Source: an uncultured Collinsella sp. (GTDB lineage: Bacteria > Actinomycetota > Coriobacteriia > Coriobacteriales > Coriobacteriaceae). Taken from it: 17,388 nucleotides of DNA. The notes under the pieces were generated by a model. It saw only the letters and a program-made list of their open reading frames with translations, was not told the DNA's origin and made no database searches. The DNA lies in NCBI GenBank assembly GCA_900556605.1, contig USPC01000017.1:1-17388 (forward strand), written 5' to 3'. Positions 3,963 through 17,388 of the stretch are shown here, one piece after another. The position numbers and the translations under genes were made by a program. The stretch's first letter is position 1. Every line of letters begins with the position of its first letter.

Positions 3963-4364
3963 CTGTCCGTTCAGTCCCCGCAGGGGACGGTAGCCTAACC
4001 CTATTCACTATTGTCTCAATTTAGTCGACTTGTGGCACGGACGTATTGTGCGAACGGTATCTTTACCTACTTCTTACGCTGACAAGTCATAGGACTGACG
4101 CCCTGCTCGTCTGCAAGCGGTCTATATCCTCACTCAACTGGTACGTAAGTGTGAATAAGAATGATGGATAGCTGAATATCATTGAATGCAGGCGGAAACG
4201 TAAACAAACATCATTTATATACATAAAACCGATTTAGCTATGCAATTATGAATCAAAAGTTTAGAGATGCAATTGCAAATAGTTTTTAGGAAAAAAGAGC
4301 GTTTACCTTTGAAAAGTTACTTTAGAACGCCGAAGTACATTATGGGGGAATCTCATGCGATATA

Positions 4365-4391
4365 CCGTTCATCGCACTTTGCTGACCGTTC
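4365..4391 (+). promoter_or_regulatory. Paired CCGTTC direct repeats upstream of arcA copy 1
   Basis: Two CCGTTC hexamers, at 4365-4370 and 4386-4391, start exactly 21 bp apart, two helical turns. The downstream one begins 15 bp before the weak -35 element. The same hexamers, the same 21-bp spacing and the same 15-bp offset occur before arcA copy 2 although the sequence between them has changed. This is what binding sites for a dimeric activator acting near -50 and -70 would look like. The protein is not identified by the sequence. Confidence 0.6.
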
Positions 4392-4400
4392 GGGGGCGAG

Positions 4401-4430
4401 GTGGAATTGCGGGTGGTTTTTGGATATAAC
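4401..4430 (+). promoter_or_regulatory. arcA copy 1 promoter, weak -35 and clear -10
   Basis: GTGGAA (4401-4406), an 18-bp spacer and TATAAC (4425-4430) match the element found before arcA copy 2 in spacing and sequence. The -35 is far from TTGACA, consistent with dependence on an activator bound at the upstream CCGTTC repeats. Transcription would start near 4437 and leave a leader of about 76 nt. Confidence 0.55.
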
Positions 4431-4476
4431 TAGAGCTGTCAGCAAGCAGCGTCCCATACGGAGGGGCGCTGATACA

Positions 4477-4510
4477 TTCGGCCAGTAAGGCCCGAAAGAA
4501 AGGTAGGAGG
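4477..4510 (+). promoter_or_regulatory. Leader hairpin and ribosome site of arcA copy 1
   Basis: TTCGGCC (4477-4483) pairs with GGCCCGAA (4489-4496) with one bulged base and a 5-nt loop. Two Shine-Dalgarno-like segments follow: AAAGG (4499-4503), nine nt before the ATG, and AGGAGG (4505-4510), only two nt before it. The first has the usual spacing and resembles the arcB site, so it is probably the one used. The hairpin is conserved before arcA copy 2. Confidence 0.5.
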
Positions 4511-4512
4511 CC

Positions 4513-5754
4513 ATGACGAAAGGTCTGCACGTGCCTTCCGAGATCGGCAAGCTCAGGAAGGTCTGCCTGCACCGTCCCGGCGACGAGCTCCTCAACCTGC
4601 CGCCCGACGAGCTCGAGCGACTCCTGTTCGACGACGTCCCGTTCCTGGAGGTCGCGCAGCAGGAGCACGACACCTTCGCCCAGATCCTGAGGGACCAGGG
4701 CGTCGAGGTCCTCTATCTCGAGAACCTCGTCGCCGAGGTGTTCGACCAGGTCCCCGGCGCCCGCGCCGAGTTCACCGACCAGTACATCGCCGAGGCCGGC
4801 ATCCGCGGCCAGCACATGCCGCAGATCGTCCGCGAGAAGCTGGACTCCATCGAGGACAACCTCGAGTTCGTCAAGAAGACCATGGCCGGCATGACCAAGG
4901 CCGAGATCGACCTGCCCCTCACGGCGTCCACGACCCTCGACTCCCTGGTCAACTCCGAGTCCGAGTCCGACCTGATCATCGACCCGATGCCCAACCTCTA
5001 CTTCACCCGCGACCCGTTCGCGGTCGTCGGCGAGGGCGTCAACCTCAACCGCATGTACTCGGTCACCCGCAACCGCGAGACCCTGTACGGCAAGTACGTC
5101 TTCAAGTACCACCCCGACTACAAGGACGTCTCCCTGTACTTCCGCCGCGACTGCCAGTTCCACACCGAGGGCGGCGACGTGCTGAACATCAACGAGAAGA
5201 CCCTCGCCGTCGGCATCTCCCAGCGCACCCAGGCCGCCGCTATCGACGTCATGGCCCAGAACATCTTCTGGAACTCCGACTCCAAGGTCGAGCGCATCCT
5301 GGCCTTCGACATCCCGGTCTCGCGCGCCTTCATGCACCTCGACACGGTCTTCACCCAGATCGACGTCGATAAGTTCACGATCCACCCCGCCATCATGGGC
5401 ACCCTGCGCGTCTACGAGCTGACCGCCGGCAAGAACCCGGGCGACGTGAACATCCGCCTGATCGAGGACACCCTCGAGCACGTCCTGGAGGACGCCACCG
5501 GCGTCGACCAGGTCAAGCTGATCCCCTGCGGCGGCGGCGACCCGATCGCGGCCTCCCGCGAGCAGTGGAACGACGGCTCCAACACCCTGTGCGTCGAGCC
5601 CGGCAAGATCTGCGTCTACGCCCGCAACACCGTCACCAACGACGTGCTGTACAAGGAGGGCCTGGACCTTCTCGTCGTGCCCTCCGCCGAGCTCTCCCGC
5701 GGCCGCGGCGGCCCGCGCTGCATGAGCATGCCCTTCTGGCGCGAGGACCTCTAA
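4513..5754 (+). CDS. arcA: Arginine deiminase, copy 1
   Basis: ArcA hydrolyses L-arginine to citrulline and ammonia, the first step of the fermentative arginine deiminase pathway, in the cytoplasm. The 413-aa length is typical. The guanidino-group-modifying fold residues are all present: D167 in NLYFTRDPF, E219 and D222 in EGGD, H275 and D277 in FMHLDTVF, and the nucleophile C403 in GRGGPRCMSMPFW; their spacing agrees with the well-studied Mycoplasma and Pseudomonas enzymes. The start is fixed by the conserved N terminus (HVPSEIGKLRKV). Codons end overwhelmingly in C, more so than in ppk1 or the methyltransferase, which suggests very high expression. This copy is identical in DNA to 7602-8843. 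It has its own promoter upstream and a terminator at 5815-5848, so it can be transcribed alone. Confidence 0.97.
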   Translation: MTKGLHVPSEIGKLRKVCLHRPGDELLNLPPDELERLLFDDVPFLEVAQQEHDTFAQILRDQGVEVLYLENLVAEVFDQVPGARAEFTDQYIAEAGIRGQHMPQIVREKLDSIEDNLEFVKKTMAGMTKAEIDLPLTASTTLDSLVNSESESDLIIDPMPNLYFTRDPFAVVGEGVNLNRMYSVTRNRETLYGKYVFKYHPDYKDVSLYFRRDCQFHTEGGDVLNINEKTLAVGISQRTQAAAIDVMAQNIFWNSDSKVERILAFDIPVSRAFMHLDTVFTQIDVDKFTIHPAIMGTLRVYELTAGKNPGDVNIRLIEDTLEHVLEDATGVDQVKLIPCGGGDPIAASREQWNDGSNTLCVEPGKICVYARNTVTNDVLYKEGLDLLVVPSAELSRGRGGPRCMSMPFWREDL

Positions 5755-5787
5755 GGTCTTCAAGGACCCGTACAGGTCATAATACAT

Positions 5788-5848
5788 ACATCTAGCTGCC
5801 ATTAGATGTCTCCCATTGGGGCGGTGCGGGTTTTCGCACCGCCCCAAT
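5788..5848 (+). terminator. Double hairpin terminator after arcA copy 1
   Basis: A first small stem, ACATCTA/TAGATGT (5788-5794 with 5803-5809), is followed by a perfect 14-bp stem ATTGGGGCGGTGCG/CGCACCGCCCCAAT (5815-5828 with 5835-5848) with a GGTTTT loop. The second stem is strong but is followed only by CTTGTA, not a real T run, so termination may be partial and allow readthrough into the aminotransferase gene 55 nt downstream. Confidence 0.65.
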
Positions 5849-5903
5849 CTTGTATGAGGAACGTCAACACGATTGGATGACTGCTTTTGTAAGGAGCTTG
5901 GCC

Positions 5904-7028
5904 ATGGACATCAAGACGATTGGCGTTGAGGAATGGCTCAACGTTTGGGAGAAGAGCGCCACGTGGGACATCGCCCAGTCGACGATCTCGTCGCTCACCA
6001 TGGGCGAGCTGCGCGCGCTCGATGAACAGGACGGCGCCACGTTCTACGAGCGCCTGGACCGCGAGAAGATGAACTACGGCTGGATCGAGGGCTCGCCGGA
6101 GTTTAAGGCCGAGGTTGCCAAGCTGTATCGTCGGGAGGTCAATCCCGATCACATTCTGCAGACCAATGGCTGCACGGGCGCTAACCTCAACGCCATCATG
6201 GCTGTGGTCGAGCCCGGCGACCATGTTATCGCCGAGTGGCCCACCTACGCGCCGCTCTACGAGATTCCGCGCACGCTGGGCGCCGAGGTCGAGTATTGGG
6301 AGCTTCGCGAGGAACTCGGCTGGAAGCCCGATATCGAGGAACTCAAGCGCTTGGTGCGTCCCAACACCAAGCTTATCTGCATAAACAACGCATCTAACCC
6401 CATCGGTACGGTGCTCGATGCCGATATGCTCGGCCAGATTGCCGAGATCGCCCGCTCGGTGGGCGCCTACGTGCTGTGCGACGAGGTATATCTGCCGCTC
6501 GAAAACACTGAGTCCTTTATGTCGATGGTCGACGTGTACGAGAGGGCCATTGTCACCAACTCGTTGTCGAAGACCTATTCGACACCTGCGGCCCGCGTGG
6601 GCTGGGTCCTGGCCGACAAAGAGGTGTCCAACCGCATCCGTACCTATCGCGATTACACCATGATCTGCGGCGGCGTGTTCAACGATGCTCTGGCGACCTA
6701 TGTGCTTGAGCACAAGGATAAGATTCTCGAGCGCAATCGCAAGATCGTGTTTGGCAACCGCGATATCGCGCAGGCTTGGATCGATACGCAGCATCGCGTT
6801 TCCTGGACGGCCCCGCAGGGCGTGTCCACCTCGTTTATCCAGCTGGATATTCCCGAGGATGACGAGGAGTTCTGCAGGCGCCTGCTGTCCGAGAGGGGAG
6901 TGCTGCTGGTCCCCGGTAGCCGTTTTGAGCTTCCCTGCGGCGCACGCCTGGGCTACTGCGCGAGCGAGGACGTTCTGCGCGAGGGCCTGAGGCTTTTGGG
7001 CGAGGCACTGGCGGAGTTCGATCGCTAG
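5904..7028 (+). CDS. ArcT-like class I/II PLP-dependent aminotransferase
   Basis: A fold-type I PLP enzyme of 374 aa. The ATG at 5904 follows AAGGAG by 7 nt; an upstream TTG at 5850 in the same frame would overlap the preceding terminator and is rejected. Visible residues are N165-P166 in NNASNPIG, D193 and Y196 in CDEVY (cofactor pyridine and phenol contacts), the Schiff-base lysine K223 in SLSKTYSTPAARVGW, and R348 in ARLGYC, which should bind the substrate carboxylate. Aminotransferases of this type, named ArcT, sit in arc operons of lactobacilli and streptococci; the position between two arcA genes suggests the same family, but the substrate is unknown in those systems too. No strong promoter is visible in the 55 nt between the terminator and the gene, so expression may depend on readthrough from arcA copy 1. 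A good terminator follows at 7078-7116. Confidence 0.85.
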   Translation: MDIKTIGVEEWLNVWEKSATWDIAQSTISSLTMGELRALDEQDGATFYERLDREKMNYGWIEGSPEFKAEVAKLYRREVNPDHILQTNGCTGANLNAIMAVVEPGDHVIAEWPTYAPLYEIPRTLGAEVEYWELREELGWKPDIEELKRLVRPNTKLICINNASNPIGTVLDADMLGQIAEIARSVGAYVLCDEVYLPLENTESFMSMVDVYERAIVTNSLSKTYSTPAARVGWVLADKEVSNRIRTYRDYTMICGGVFNDALATYVLEHKDKILERNRKIVFGNRDIAQAWIDTQHRVSWTAPQGVSTSFIQLDIPEDDEEFCRRLLSERGVLLVPGSRFELPCGARLGYCASEDVLREGLRLLGEALAEFDR

Positions 7029-7077
7029 GATTCCGATGGTCTTCGGGGGCCTTATCCAAATTAGCCGAAGATAATCG

Positions 7078-7117
7078 AAAACGGACCCGTTTCCCTAGGG
7101 GAAGCGGGTCCGTTTTT
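7078..7117 (+). terminator. Intrinsic terminator of the aminotransferase gene
   Basis: AAAACGGACCCG (7078-7089) pairs with CGGGTCCGTTTT (7105-7116), and the helix continues inward through TTTCCC/GGGAAG to a tiny loop, with one G-T pair. It ends in five T residues (7113-7117). This is a textbook Rho-independent terminator that closes off the unit before arcA copy 2. Confidence 0.85.
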
Positions 7118-7197
7118 CTATACCGAGAAGTCAAGTTGTTACAAATGGGGCCGTAAAGCGAGGCGGTATCCGCTGGGCCTTATACTGAGTTTCCGGT

Positions 7198-7224
7198 GAA
7201 CGGTATCAAGCGTCTGGTAAACGG
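7198..7224 (-). promoter_or_regulatory. Reverse-orientation CCGTTY pair with 21-bp spacing
   Basis: GAACGG (7198-7203) and AAACGG (7219-7224) are the reverse complements of CCGTTC and CCGTTT. They again start exactly 21 bp apart. The sequence TGAACGGTAT here is the exact reverse complement of ATACCGTTCA before arcA copy 1. It may be a distal site for the same regulator, about 250 bp upstream of the proximal pair of copy 2. Confidence 0.4.
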
Positions 7225-7453
7225 TAATTTATTTATCAGAAATGAATAGGACAAACTTTTTTCTGAATAAAAATGAAAATGGTTGAGACGCGGTGTGAAC
7301 CGCTAATTCTATTCATAGCTTTATTGGAAATATGCAATTTGAGGATGGTTTAACAAAGTTTAGTTCCATTTGATTTTAGGATTAAAACGCGTTTAAGCAC
7401 GTAAATACGCTTTATTAAGATGAAGTGTGCCATGCGTGAAGTATATGTGTATG

Positions 7454-7480
7454 CCGTTCACCCCCTATAAAAAACCGTTC
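7454..7480 (+). promoter_or_regulatory. Paired CCGTTC direct repeats upstream of arcA copy 2
   Basis: CCGTTC at 7454-7459 and 7475-7480, 21 bp apart, with the second starting 15 bp before the -35-like hexamer. Both are followed by the same bases as in copy 1: CCGTTCA for the first and CCGTTCGGGGGC for the second. The DNA between the hexamers is almost unrelated to copy 1, so the hexamers and their spacing are what has been kept. Confidence 0.6.
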
Positions 7481-7489
7481 GGGGGCAAG

Positions 7490-7519
7490 GTGGAAGTATG
7501 AGCTGATTTTGGATATAAA
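7490..7519 (+). promoter_or_regulatory. arcA copy 2 promoter
   Basis: GTGGAA (7490-7495), an 18-bp spacer and TATAAA (7514-7519), the same architecture as before copy 1. The start of transcription would be near 7526. The poor -35 and the flanking repeats point to activation rather than constitutive use. Confidence 0.55.
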
Positions 7520-7601: not shown

Positions 7602-8843
7602 ATGACGAAAGGTCTGCACGTGCCTTCCGAGATCGGCAAGCTCAGGAAGGTCTGCCTGCACCGTCCCGGCGACGAGCTCCTCAACCTGCCGCCCGACGAG
7701 CTCGAGCGACTCCTGTTCGACGACGTCCCGTTCCTGGAGGTCGCGCAGCAGGAGCACGACACCTTCGCCCAGATCCTGAGGGACCAGGGCGTCGAGGTCC
7801 TCTATCTCGAGAACCTCGTCGCCGAGGTGTTCGACCAGGTCCCCGGCGCCCGCGCCGAGTTCACCGACCAGTACATCGCCGAGGCCGGCATCCGCGGCCA
7901 GCACATGCCGCAGATCGTCCGCGAGAAGCTGGACTCCATCGAGGACAACCTCGAGTTCGTCAAGAAGACCATGGCCGGCATGACCAAGGCCGAGATCGAC
8001 CTGCCCCTCACGGCGTCCACGACCCTCGACTCCCTGGTCAACTCCGAGTCCGAGTCCGACCTGATCATCGACCCGATGCCCAACCTCTACTTCACCCGCG
8101 ACCCGTTCGCGGTCGTCGGCGAGGGCGTCAACCTCAACCGCATGTACTCGGTCACCCGCAACCGCGAGACCCTGTACGGCAAGTACGTCTTCAAGTACCA
8201 CCCCGACTACAAGGACGTCTCCCTGTACTTCCGCCGCGACTGCCAGTTCCACACCGAGGGCGGCGACGTGCTGAACATCAACGAGAAGACCCTCGCCGTC
8301 GGCATCTCCCAGCGCACCCAGGCCGCCGCTATCGACGTCATGGCCCAGAACATCTTCTGGAACTCCGACTCCAAGGTCGAGCGCATCCTGGCCTTCGACA
8401 TCCCGGTCTCGCGCGCCTTCATGCACCTCGACACGGTCTTCACCCAGATCGACGTCGATAAGTTCACGATCCACCCCGCCATCATGGGCACCCTGCGCGT
8501 CTACGAGCTGACCGCCGGCAAGAACCCGGGCGACGTGAACATCCGCCTGATCGAGGACACCCTCGAGCACGTCCTGGAGGACGCCACCGGCGTCGACCAG
8601 GTCAAGCTGATCCCCTGCGGCGGCGGCGACCCGATCGCGGCCTCCCGCGAGCAGTGGAACGACGGCTCCAACACCCTGTGCGTCGAGCCCGGCAAGATCT
8701 GCGTCTACGCCCGCAACACCGTCACCAACGACGTGCTGTACAAGGAGGGCCTGGACCTTCTCGTCGTGCCCTCCGCCGAGCTCTCCCGCGGCCGCGGCGG
8801 CCCGCGCTGCATGAGCATGCCCTTCTGGCGCGAGGACCTCTAA
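7602..8843 (+). CDS. arcA: Arginine deiminase, copy 2
   Basis: This is a second full arginine deiminase gene encoding the same 413 aa, with D167, E219, H275, D277 and C403 in place. On reading both copies line by line I found no base difference from 24 nt before the ATG to one base after the stop codon. It leads the arcA-arcB stretch: arcB starts 105 nt after its stop and only a T-less double hairpin lies between, so the two are probably cotranscribed. Because the protein is unchanged, the second copy most likely serves dosage or separate regulation (copy 1 monocistronic or with the aminotransferase, copy 2 with arcB and the carrier) rather than a new activity. An assembly artefact is a real alternative, since a 1.27-kb identical repeat is hard to place with short reads. 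Confidence 0.95.
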   Translation: MTKGLHVPSEIGKLRKVCLHRPGDELLNLPPDELERLLFDDVPFLEVAQQEHDTFAQILRDQGVEVLYLENLVAEVFDQVPGARAEFTDQYIAEAGIRGQHMPQIVREKLDSIEDNLEFVKKTMAGMTKAEIDLPLTASTTLDSLVNSESESDLIIDPMPNLYFTRDPFAVVGEGVNLNRMYSVTRNRETLYGKYVFKYHPDYKDVSLYFRRDCQFHTEGGDVLNINEKTLAVGISQRTQAAAIDVMAQNIFWNSDSKVERILAFDIPVSRAFMHLDTVFTQIDVDKFTIHPAIMGTLRVYELTAGKNPGDVNIRLIEDTLEHVLEDATGVDQVKLIPCGGGDPIAASREQWNDGSNTLCVEPGKICVYARNTVTNDVLYKEGLDLLVVPSAELSRGRGGPRCMSMPFWREDL

Positions 8844-8948: not shown

Positions 8949-9944
8949 ATGGGTGTTAACCTTTCCGGCCGTAGCTTCCTCAAGCTTCTCGACCTCACCA
9001 CCGAGGAGATCGAGTACCTGCTCAAGCTCTCCAAGAACTTCAAGGATATGAAGCGCGCTGGCGTTCCGCACCGCTATCTCGAGGGCAAGAACATCGTTCT
9101 GCTCTTCCAGAAGACCTCTACTCGTACCCGCTGCGCCTTCGAGGTCGGCGGCATGGATCTGGGCATGGGCGTCACCTACCTCGATCCGGGTTCGTCGCAG
9201 ATGGGCAAGAAGGAGTCCATCGAGGACACTGCCCGCGTTCTCGGCCGCATGTATGACGGCATCGAGTTCCGTGGCTTTGCCCAGGACGACGTCGAGGAGC
9301 TCGCTGCTAAGTCCGGCGTGCCCGTGTGGAACGGCCTGACCACCGAGTGGCACCCCACCCAGATGCTCGCCGACATCCTGACCGTCCAGGAGAACTTCAA
9401 CTACGACATCAAGGGCAAGACCCTCGTCTTCATGGGCGACTGCAAGAACAATGTCGCTCGCTCCCTCATGGTCGTCTGCTCCAAGCTCGGCATGAACTTC
9501 GTGGCCTGCGGCCCCGAGGAGTGCATGCCCGCTGACGACGTCATCGAGGCCTGCAAGCCCATCGCCGAGGCTAACGGCTGCACCATCAAGCTGACCACCG
9601 ACGTCAAGGACGGCGTCACCGGTGCCGACGTTATCTACACCGACGTGTGGGTCTCCATGGGCGAGCCCGACGAGGTCTGGGCCGAGCGCATCGCTCAGCT
9701 CACCCCGTATCGTGTCACCTCCGAGGTCATGGCTATGGCCAACCCGGGTGCCATCTTCCTGCACTGCCTGCCCAGCTTCCACGACACCAACACCACCATT
9801 GGCGCCGAGAAGTGCGAGCAGTTCGGCATCACCGAGCAGGAGGTCACCGACGAGGTCTTCGAGAGCCCCGCTTCCAAGGTCTTCGACGAGGCCGAGAACC
9901 GCATGCACACCATCAAGGCTGTCATGTACGCCACGCTCAAGTAA
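8949..9944 (+). CDS. arcB: Ornithine carbamoyltransferase, catabolic
   Basis: In the arginine deiminase pathway this enzyme splits citrulline with phosphate into ornithine and carbamoyl phosphate. The 331-aa protein has the carbamoyl-phosphate loop STRTR (57-61), HPTQ (135-138), the ornithine-binding DVWVSMGE (232-239) and the active-site HCLP (272-275) with C273. The start follows GAAAGGA by 8 nt. The arc context and the C-ending codon bias shared with arcA favour a catabolic role and the name arcB over the biosynthetic argF, although the two cannot be separated from sequence motifs alone. It lies between arcA copy 2 and the YfcC carrier and ends in a terminator at 9961-9994. No carbamate kinase gene, the usual third enzyme, follows. 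Confidence 0.95.
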
Positions 9945-9996: not shown

Positions 9997-10091
9997 ATCT
10001 GGTAATAATCTCGCATCAAGCGGCAGGCACGGCACGGAAGAGCCGCTTCTGGCGAGATCAGTAAATGATTTATGAAGGGGGGATGAGAACT

Positions 10092-11570
10092 ATGACTGAG
10101 ACCGCTAAGAAAAAGCGCGGTATGCCTTCATCGTTCACCATTCTTCTTGCTCTGCTGGCAATTGTCGCAGTGATTACCGTTATCGTCTCCGGCACGTCCG
10201 GCGGCGCGGTTACTGCCGCCCGTCTGAGCGATTTCTGCACCGCCCCGATTAAGGGCTTCGCTGACGCTCTGCCCGTCTGCCTCTTCGTTATGATCCTGGG
10301 CGGCTTCCTCGGTATGATGACCGAGACCGGCGCCCTGGACAACGGCATCGCCGTTCTGGTGCAGAAGCTTAAGGGCAACGAGATTATGCTCATTCCCGTG
10401 CTGATGCTCATCTTCTCCCTCGGTGGTACCACCTATGGTATGTGCGAGGAGACCGTTCCCTTCTACGCCCTGCTCGCCGCTACCATGATGGCCGCTGGCT
10501 TCGACCCCATGGTCGGTGCCGCTACCGTCCTGCTCGGCGCTGGCTGCGGCTGCCTGGGCTCCACGGTTAACCCGTTCGCCGTCGGCGCTGCCGTCGACGC
10601 TCTGACCGGCGTTGGCATTGAGGTCAACCAGTCCATCATCATCGGCCTCGGTGCCGTCCTGTGGATTGTCACTACCGCTATGTCCATCTTCTTCGTGATG
10701 AGCTACGCCAAGAAGGTCAAGGCTGACAAGGGTTCCACCATCCTGTCGATGCAGGAGCTCAAGGACGCCGAAGAGGCTCACGGCAAGGCTGCTTCCGAGG
10801 TCCACAAGGAGGTCAAGCTCACCGGTCGTCAGAAGGGTGTTCTGATTGCCTTCGCCTTCACCTTCGTCGTCATGATCGTCGGCTTCATTCCGCTGGCCGA
10901 CCTCAACGAGGGCGTCGCTAACTTCTTCGACGCTGGCGCTGTCTACGACGCCGACGGTAACGCCGTCGTCCAGGGCTGGTCTGCCCTGATCACCGGCCTG
11001 CCCATTGGCCAGTGGTACTTCGACGAGGCTTCCACCTGGTTCTTCCTTATGGCCGTCCTGATCGGTATCATCGGTGGCCTGTCCGAGAAGCAGATCGTTA
11101 ACACCTTTATCACCGGCGCTGCCGACATGATGTCCGTTGTTCTCGTCATCGCCCTCGCCCGTGGTATCTCCGTCCTCATGGCTAACACCGGCCTCGATGT
11201 CTTCGTCCTCGACGCTGCCGCCAATGCCCTGGCTGGCCTGTCCGGCGTGATCTTCGCTCCCATGAGCTTCCTGGTCTACTTCGGCCTGTCCTTCCTGATC
11301 CCCTCGACCTCCGGTATGGCCACCGTCTCCATGCCCATCATGGGACCGCTGGCTGTTAAGCTCGGCTTCTCGCCCGAGGTCATGGTCATGATCTTCTCCG
11401 CTGCCATCGGTGTCGTGAACCTGTTCACCCCGACCTCCGGCGCCATCATGGGCGGTCTCGCCCTGGCCAAGATCGAGTGGACGACCTGGCTCAAGTTTGC
11501 CCTTAAGCTCATCGTCGCTCTCTCCGTCGTCTGCGCCGTCATCCTGACCGTCGCCTGCGTGCTGATCTAA
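10092..11570 (+). CDS. YfcC-family (DcuC superfamily) carrier, probable arginine/ornithine exchanger
   Basis: An integral membrane protein of 492 aa with about 12 hydrophobic helices, the first at residues 15-33. Signature segments include GGTTYGMCEETVPFY (111-125) and GSTVNPFAVG (156-165), and a repeat-like partner segment near SFLIPSTSGMATVSMPIMGPL in the second half. A charged cytoplasmic loop of about 45 residues (206-248) joins the halves. The ATG at 10092 is preferred because AAGGGGGG lies 9 nt before it; two upstream ATGs (10065, 10083) precede or overlap that site. YfcC-type carriers occur in arc operons of several Firmicutes in the place of the classical ArcD, so arginine uptake coupled to ornithine export is the likely job; this is inference from context. 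Codon use matches arcA and arcB. Confidence 0.88.
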   Translation: MTETAKKKRGMPSSFTILLALLAIVAVITVIVSGTSGGAVTAARLSDFCTAPIKGFADALPVCLFVMILGGFLGMMTETGALDNGIAVLVQKLKGNEIMLIPVLMLIFSLGGTTYGMCEETVPFYALLAATMMAAGFDPMVGAATVLLGAGCGCLGSTVNPFAVGAAVDALTGVGIEVNQSIIIGLGAVLWIVTTAMSIFFVMSYAKKVKADKGSTILSMQELKDAEEAHGKAASEVHKEVKLTGRQKGVLIAFAFTFVVMIVGFIPLADLNEGVANFFDAGAVYDADGNAVVQGWSALITGLPIGQWYFDEASTWFFLMAVLIGIIGGLSEKQIVNTFITGAADMMSVVLVIALARGISVLMANTGLDVFVLDAAANALAGLSGVIFAPMSFLVYFGLSFLIPSTSGMATVSMPIMGPLAVKLGFSPEVMVMIFSAAIGVVNLFTPTSGAIMGGLALAKIEWTTWLKFALKLIVALSVVCAVILTVACVLI

Positions 11571-17359: not shown

Positions 17360-17388
17360 CTGTCTCTTATACACATCTCCGAGCCCAC
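17360..17388. other. Nextera/Tn5 adapter remnant (not genomic)
   Basis: CTGTCTCTTATACACATCT (17360-17378) is the 19-bp Tn5 mosaic end, and CCGAGCCCAC (17379-17388) is the first part of the Nextera read-2 adapter tail. It sits at the very end of the window. This is untrimmed library sequence, and it marks the window end as a contig end. Confidence 0.97.

What the first reader, a model, noticed from the sequence alone, without database searches (positions are those of the whole stretch)
4365..7519. Twin arcA promoters share CCGTTC direct repeats at exact 21-bp spacing
Before both arcA copies, two CCGTTC hexamers start exactly 21 bp apart, the second starts exactly 15 bp before GTGGAA, and an 18-bp spacer leads to TATAAM. 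The bases between the hexamers differ, so spacing and hexamers are what is kept. Two helical turns and positions near -50 and -70 suggest a dimeric or tandem-bound activator. I know of no described arc regulator with this site; Coriobacteria carry many LuxR-type regulators, which would be candidates.
Basis: partly seen in the sequence, partly recalled or inferred. Interest (0 to 1): 0.72.

Follow-up and report, generated by a model that had tools for sequence, protein, structure and literature searches.

The report
BtsR-like regulator sites before arcA
The paired CCGTTC repeats before the two arginine deiminase genes of this gut bacterium look like binding sites for a BtsR-like LytTR response regulator, and the same sites sit before many sugar and amino-acid breakdown genes, which suggests a carbon-use control network that I found no description of.

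Summary
In detail: CCGTTC-N15-CCGTTC occurs at 4365 and 7454 and nowhere else in the window (2 found, 0.01 expected), with the stated spacings. A third pair lies on the minus strand at 7225-7198.

The real unit is a 21-bp-period tandem box, about ACCGTTYACSGG-nn-AAAA-nCT-ACCGTTC. It fits the published LytTR site format and closely resembles the E. coli BtsR (YehT) site ACCGCTTA-N13-ACCACTCA.

In 43 Collinsella genomes, exact ACCGTT-N15-ACCGTTC occurs 174 times against 13 for the reversed pattern. In the nearest genome, 16 of 20 neighbouring proteins scanned are transport or catabolic families. In 18 of 18 arcA promoters compared, box spacing and box-to-minus-10 distance are invariant; GTGGAA is not.

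A BtsR-like response regulator (RR-B) beside a histidine kinase is widespread in the order. In G003, G029 and G041 it is the only LytTR protein found, yet boxes are enriched.

Best reading: LytTR activator sites of a broad catabolic regulon. The LuxR guess is not supported. Binding, expression and signal are untested.

The parts
4364..4393 (+). LytTR-type box pair before arcA copy 1: 9-mers ACCGTTCAT (4364-4372) and ACCGTTCGG (4385-4393), 21-bp period
   Evidence: boxes at -61 and -40 from the TATA in 18 of 18 Collinsella arcA promoters
7453..7482 (+). LytTR-type box pair before arcA copy 2: GCCGTTCAC (7453-7461) and ACCGTTCGG (7474-7482)
7198..7225 (-). third box pair ACCGTTTACCAGACGCTTGATACCGTTC, about 250 bp upstream of the arcA2-proximal pair, opposite strand; also in L001-L004, and a similar one in L005
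   Evidence: Role unknown: relic of a ppk-directed site or a distal site
4401..4430 (+). putative arcA1 promoter: GTGGAA (4401-4406), 18-bp spacer, TTGGATATAAC with TATAAC at 4425-4430
   Evidence: the -10 region is conserved in the genus, GTGGAA is not. A generic sigma-70 scan did not list it
7490..7519 (+). putative arcA2 promoter: GTGGAA (7490-7495), 18-bp spacer, TATAAA at 7514-7519
   Evidence: not listed by the generic scan
4513..5754 (+). arcA copy 1, arginine deiminase (413 aa)
   Evidence: TIGR01078, 494.6 bits, cut-off 489.1
7602..8843 (+). arcA copy 2; coding sequence identical to copy 1 (0 of 1242 differences)
8949..9944 (+). ornithine carbamoyltransferase (argF/arcB type)
   Evidence: TIGR00658 over cut-off
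10065..11570 (+). YfcC-like basic amino-acid transporter
   Evidence: PRK11588 E 3.8e-60, below its cut-off

Best explanation
The repeats are a LytTR-type operator. Two 9-bp half-sites, ACCGTTYAY, lie on the same face of the helix two turns (21 bp) apart, with an A/T-rich tract between them. A BtsR-like response regulator binds as a dimer or tandem pair and activates an extended -10 promoter that has little -35 of its own. The most likely protein is RR-B (L176:11024-11737), encoded beside a GAF-type histidine kinase, HK-B. In Collinsella the same operator precedes many other operons for PTS sugars, permeases, glycosidases, uronate and amino-acid breakdown, so arcA is one member of a broad catabolic regulon. 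Shown: the sites, their spacing, their enrichment, their placement in the genus, the likeness to the E. coli BtsR site, and the presence of LytTR regulators. Inferred: that a LytTR protein binds, that it is RR-B, and that the effect is activation. Unknown: the signal.
For: (1) Format: published LytTR sites are 9-11 nt repeats 11-13 nt apart (passage, PMC4847170); S. mutans-type ones are 9-bp repeats mostly 12 bp apart, upstream of the -35 (passages, PMC6193735); AgrA sites centre near -60 (passage, PMC4227749). Here 9 + 12 bp, centre about -58 if the start is near 4437. (2) Sequence: the E. coli btsT upstream region contains ACCGCTTACATCCCTAAAATAACCACTCA, the stretch carried by the YehT binding-site oligo of PMC4847170: same period, same A-rich centre. 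(3) Spacing: of 134 pairs with spacers 8-24 in 24 genomes, 101 have N15, 13 N16, 8 N17, 12 others. (4) Enrichment: 174 against 13; degenerate ACCRYTYR-N13-ACCRYTYR, f1 328 against 55 in 32 genomes and f5 114 against 22 in 33, but f2 23 against 34 and f6 17 against 17. (5) Promoter geometry: boxes at -61/-40 in 18 of 18 Collinsella arcA promoters; -72/-51 in Olsenella phocaeensis, an 11-bp shift. In 51 non-redundant sites a TATAAT-like word lies at offset 73 in 8; 300 shuffles gave at most 5 at any offset. (6) Regulator: LytTR domains in 43 of 43 Collinsella genomes. G003, G029 and G041 have one LytTR match each and no RR-A, yet 12, 7 and 10 degenerate sites against 1, 1 and 1 control. RR-B's best NCBIfam model is BtsR, 173.8 bits. 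(7) Targets.
Against: No binding or expression data. RR-B is 33% identical to E. coli BtsR and falls below NCBIfam's BtsR cut-off of 246 bits. RR-B relatives also occur in families with no site enrichment, so its presence alone does not predict the sites. G013 has one LytTR but no clear enrichment (4 against 3). RR-A could bind the sites too in the 21 of 149 sampled genomes that have it. No site with up to 2 mismatches was found in the G001 stretch that encodes both LytTR systems, so autoregulation is not seen. A generic sigma-70 scan does not list the arcA promoters. The wider regulon shows no single box-to-minus-10 distance: offset 73 holds only 8 of 51, and the 4.5-bit threshold was set after a first look. 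At up to 2 mismatches in one genome the reversed control is the commoner. No background rate of catabolic genes was computed.
Confidence: 0.74

Rival explanations
1. The site is a LytTR operator, but the paralogue RR-A (L176:5120-5851), or both proteins, binds it.
For: RR-A is also BtsR-like. In G025 a one-mismatch site lies 5' of an amino-acid permease and an amidohydrolase gene that precede HK-A and RR-A.
Against: RR-A matches of at least 59% identity occur in 21 of 149 sampled genomes, all in family f1, and are missing from 11 of 32 f1 genomes, including G003 and G088, which are rich in sites.
Confidence: 0.12
2. A transcription factor of another family with a 21-bp direct-repeat site (AraC/XylS type, recalled) or a LuxR-type protein binds the repeats.
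For: AraC-type half-sites at 21 bp are known (recalled, from no call). LuxR domains occur in 6 of 6 Collinsella genomes tested, AraC-type in 5 of 6.
Against: The half-site is close to a BtsR site letter by letter. The family I take for Eggerthellaceae, where LuxR expanded, shows no enrichment. AraC-type domains are absent from G013, though that genome is not clearly enriched either.
Confidence: 0.1
3. There is no regulator: the two promoters are alike only because arcA and its upstream region were duplicated.
For: The arcA copies are identical in coding sequence and the upstream regions align; the duplication is seen only in the window and L001-L004 among the window and 13 Collinsella loci compared.
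Against: Single-copy arcA genes of other Collinsella species keep the same boxes at the same distances while the sequence between changes, and non-homologous operons carry the pair.
Confidence: 0.03

Closest known systems
E. coli BtsS/BtsR (YehU/YehT) and its site before btsT (yjiY)
   Same: Box ACC[G]-[C/T]-T-[C/T]-A, 21-bp period, A-rich centre; BtsR is the best NCBIfam model for RR-B and RR-A; a nutrient-related system with a transporter as target.
   Different: RR-B is 33% identical to BtsR and below the family cut-off. HK-A and HK-B gave no membrane pyruvate-receptor domain hit in Pfam, only His_kinase, HATPase and, for HK-B, GAF_3. The passages I read present one main target each for BtsR and YpdB; here dozens of candidate sites.
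LytTR regulatory systems of streptococci (HdrR/BrsR) and AgrA
   Same: 9-bp direct repeats about 12 bp apart, placed upstream of the promoter. Several published boxes read ACCGCTTAT or similar.
   Different: Those act on bacteriocin, competence or virulence genes and on their own operons; here the targets are catabolic and no box pair was seen in the stretch encoding RR-A and RR-B.
10-12-transmembrane LuxR regulators of Coriobacteriia (DadR, HcdR, CadR)
   Same: Metabolic regulators in the same class of bacteria (abstract and section 13 of PMC9734109).
   Different: No direct-repeat site is described in the passages searched; the numerous Eggerthella-type LuxR set does not coincide with the site-rich families (the family identification is my inference).

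Membership tests
LytTR operator | two repeats of 9-11 nt separated by 11-13 nt | tested here: met
   9-mers with 12 bp between; 101 of 134 pairs at this spacing, 13 more with one extra base; format
LytTR operator | position upstream of the core promoter, centre near -60 | tested here: met
   centre about -58 if transcription starts near 4437 (inferred, not mapped); boxes at -61/-40 from the TATA in 18 of 18 arcA promoters; other operons vary
LytTR operator | a LytTR protein encoded in the genomes that carry the site | tested here: met
   43 of 43 Collinsella genomes
LytTR operator | bound by a LytTR protein | not testable with these tools
   needs EMSA, footprinting or DAP-seq
BtsR equivalog (protein RR-B) | score over NCBIfam NF008677 cut-off | tested here: not met
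   173.8 bits against 246
BtsS-type kinase (protein HK-B) | membrane pyruvate-receptor region (5TM type, recalled as PF07694) | tested here: not met
   no such hit at E <= 0.001; His_kinase, HATPase_c and GAF_3 only among the named domains besides a sub-cut-off SpoVT_C
LuxR-type operator | a known LuxR site of this form in Coriobacteriia | tested here: inconclusive
   no direct-repeat site described in the passages of PMC9734109 searched; LuxR proteins are present

The most novel reading that the evidence does not exclude
RR-B with HK-B is the global carbon- or energy-status regulator of Coriobacteriaceae and probably Atopobiaceae. A BtsR-type LytTR protein, elsewhere reported with very few targets, has been recruited to a regulon of twenty or more operons (PTS, permeases, glycosidases, uronate breakdown, arginine deiminase), doing the job that CRP or CcpA does in other bacteria and phasing its site to the -10 in whole helical turns.
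Probability: 0.35. Interest if true: 0.78.

Novelty: new variant of a known kind. Interest (0 to 1): 0.6.

Why it matters
Collinsella is a common gut actinobacterium whose gene regulation is little known; my searches for Collinsella with LytTR, or with regulon and binding terms, gave nothing on point. If right, one operator and one two-component system explain when it burns arginine and which sugars it takes up, and turn a simple sequence pattern into a testable regulon map. It would also widen what LytTR regulators do, from single-target switches to a broad catabolic regulon.

Tried and rejected
LuxR as the regulator: not supported, not strictly excluded. AraC type: not supported. Pure duplication: explains the likeness of the two copies but not the genus-wide conservation. 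MalT-like and SARP-like sites were considered from memory only and dropped because the LytTR match was far closer. RNA element: no Rfam match in the window, no tRNA. Low-stringency genome scan (2 mismatches): too noisy. A fixed -10 distance for the whole regulon: not found; only a preference at offset 73. RR tree: most deep forks open, so orthology rests on identity and shared sequence rather than on the tree. A genome-wide scan of E. coli with the Collinsella-derived pattern could not be run.

Rows dropped before counts: for I left out 11 loci that I judged chance or intragenic hits (L091, L094, L096, L103, L107, L113-L116, L128, L194) and dereplicated 106 sites to 52 or 51. For some searches I gave 20 of the 26 zero- or one-mismatch places of G001; the two arcA sites and the arcA2-distal site were known, and three places (L091, L096, L107) had no candidate start nearby. 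For L099 and L106 the divergent gene was scanned instead of the one downstream.

Full report
Observation. Coordinates of all elements were rechecked. A third pair lies on the minus strand at 7225-7198. The two arcA coding sequences are identical (0 of 1242 differences, with 24 identical bases just upstream), and the upstream regions are alignable paralogues. Likeness between the two copies is therefore weak evidence, and I turned to other genomes.

Conservation in Collinsella. ArcA loci L001-L013 come from named Collinsella records, except L010 (Candidatus Limicola). In the window and L001-L009, L011-L013 there are 18 arcA promoters with a recognisable TTGGATA-type -10. In 18 of 18 the boxes lie at -61 and -40 from the first T of the TATA (the scan prints -60 where the first box starts with G instead of A). 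L010 has the same spacing read by eye. L001's arcA1 upstream stretch is partly masked. GTGGAA is in 9 of 18, all in the window and L001-L004. In Olsenella phocaeensis (L016) the boxes are at -72 and -51, a shift of 11 bp. The duplicated order arcA - aminotransferase - arcA is seen only in the window and L001-L004; the other loci show one arcA within the fetched stretch. An arcA-type pattern with up to 2 mismatches finds 41 of 43 genomes, with 2 reversed-control matches in all; some of those matches are other sites.

Enrichment. The bare hexamer pair is not enriched in the nearest genome (6 against 8). Adding the flanking A's gives 174 exact matches in 43 genomes against 13 for the reversed pattern, and 42 of 43 genomes have at least one; the exception, G027, has an arcA-type site with 1 mismatch. 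With spacers from 8 to 24 in 24 genomes, 101 of 134 pairs have N15. Thirteen have N16, several with the same A-rich centre. The reversed pattern is the only control used. At 2 mismatches in one genome it exceeds the pattern.

What the site looks like. A logo from 52 non-redundant sites (11 loci judged chance were left out) reads ACCGTTYACSGGnn, an A/T tract, nCT, ACCGTTCRCCGG. The ACCGTT letters are there by construction; the extension YACSGG, the A/T tract and the second CACC/CGCC are not.

What binds it. Published LytTR sites are 9-11 nt repeats 11-13 nt apart (passage in PMC4847170), often 9 bp with 12 bp between, placed a little upstream of the -35 (passages in PMC6193735), with AgrA sites centred near -60 (passage in PMC4227749). 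The E. coli btsT upstream region, fetched and scanned here, contains ACCGCTTA-N13-ACCACTCA, which is the stretch used as the YehT binding-site oligo in PMC4847170. The Collinsella box differs mainly by T for C at its fifth base, and arcA promoters of several species even have ACCGCT in the second box. LytTR domains occur in 43 of 43 Collinsella genomes. G001 has two BtsR-like regulators, RR-A and RR-B, each beside a histidine kinase, plus one more distant Agr-like one. RR-A matches of at least 59% identity are found in 21 of 149 order-level genomes, all in family f1. A strong match of RR-B or RR-A type (E below 1e-48) is found in 139 of 149; ten, mostly incomplete genomes, lack it. Alignment of 20 fetched regulators puts f1 members at 80-99%, f5 at 67-70% and f2, f6, f7, f9 at 58-65% identity to RR-B. 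G003, G029 and G041 have a single LytTR match, no RR-A, and 12, 7 and 10 degenerate sites against 1, 1 and 1 control. G013, the fourth such genome, is not clearly enriched (4 against 3). This is why RR-B is preferred. The sites are enriched in f1 and f5 but not in f2 or f6, although RR-B relatives exist there. So the sites cannot be predicted from RR-B's presence alone; either its specificity or its regulon changed. Families carry no names in these data: f1 is Coriobacteriaceae by the Collinsella link (contig length of G017 equals that of the C. provencensis record); f5 as Atopobiaceae and f2 as Eggerthellaceae are my inference.

Targets. In G001, 26 places match ACCGTT-N15-ACCGTTC with at most one mismatch (7 exact, 19 with one). 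Three are at the arc genes (L088, L089, L095). Of 20 neighbouring proteins scanned, 15 belong to clear transport or catabolic families (DcuC, PTS components, GntP, xanthine/uracil permease, GH32, GH1, solute-binding protein, UxaC, MFS_2), one is a short-chain dehydrogenase, one is Mbeg1-like, and three have no Pfam match. Three places have no candidate gene start nearby, and at least L107 is inside a coding gene. Contexts in other species show by eye further PTS genes, a pyruvate kinase, an AdhE-like protein and sugar dehydrogenases; those were not run against Pfam. No background rate of catabolic genes was measured.

Mechanism. Invariant distance from boxes to -10 at arcA, an 11-bp shift in Olsenella, and a preferred offset of 73 in other operons (8 of 51; at most 5 in 300 shuffles; threshold set after a first look) fit an activator bound on one face of the DNA upstream of RNA polymerase. 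Activation is inferred, and no start site is mapped. A generic sigma-70 scan does not list the arcA promoters, which fits weak, activator-dependent promoters but is also simply absence of support. The signal is unknown: HK-B has a GAF-type domain and neither kinase shows a BtsS-like membrane receptor hit, so pyruvate sensing should not be assumed.

Literature. Dong et al. 2022 (PMC9734109: abstract and outline, searched passages, section 13) describe membrane LuxR regulators in Coriobacteriia; Collinsella is not mentioned in the main text. Searches for Collinsella with LytTR (2 papers by listing, not on point), Collinsella aerofaciens with regulon and binding terms (0), ACCGTTC with direct repeat (0) and Collinsella with arginine deiminase and promoter terms (7 by listing, none on point by title) found no prior description. 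The library holds open-licence papers only. Kraxenberger 2012 on YehT is not held.

Noticed in passing
window 17360-17378: A 19-base Nextera mosaic-end (adapter) sequence near the end of the window: the last bases are probably a sequencing artefact; it yields the telltale MYKRQ start of a spurious minus-strand ORF.
   Followed up: yes
window 7225-7198 (-): Orphan third box pair between the aminotransferase gene and arcA2, pointing away from arcA2. In L005 a similar pair lies between ppk and arcA and points to ppk, so this may be a relic of the arcA duplication.
   Followed up: partly
window 4513-5754 and 7602-8843: Two arcA copies with identical coding DNA but diverged flanks, suggesting gene conversion or recent duplication; seen only in the window and L001-L004 among the loci compared.
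   Followed up: partly
L108, L123, L134 (uxaC upstream): Two GTGAACGTTCAC palindromes just downstream of the box pair: probably local repressor operators overlapping the same promoter.
   Followed up: no
G014, G036, G037, G041, G042: Pairs with 16 instead of 15 bases between, sharing a GAAA centre (e.g. ACCGTTCAGGCACCTGAAATCGACCGTTC): possibly real sites with a 22-bp period.
   Followed up: no
L180 (G017) and L179 (G025): HK-A/RR-A lies beside an amino-acid permease (L179: and an amidohydrolase) and, in L180, a protein that looks by eye like carbamate kinase; in L179 a box pair precedes the permease.
   Followed up: partly
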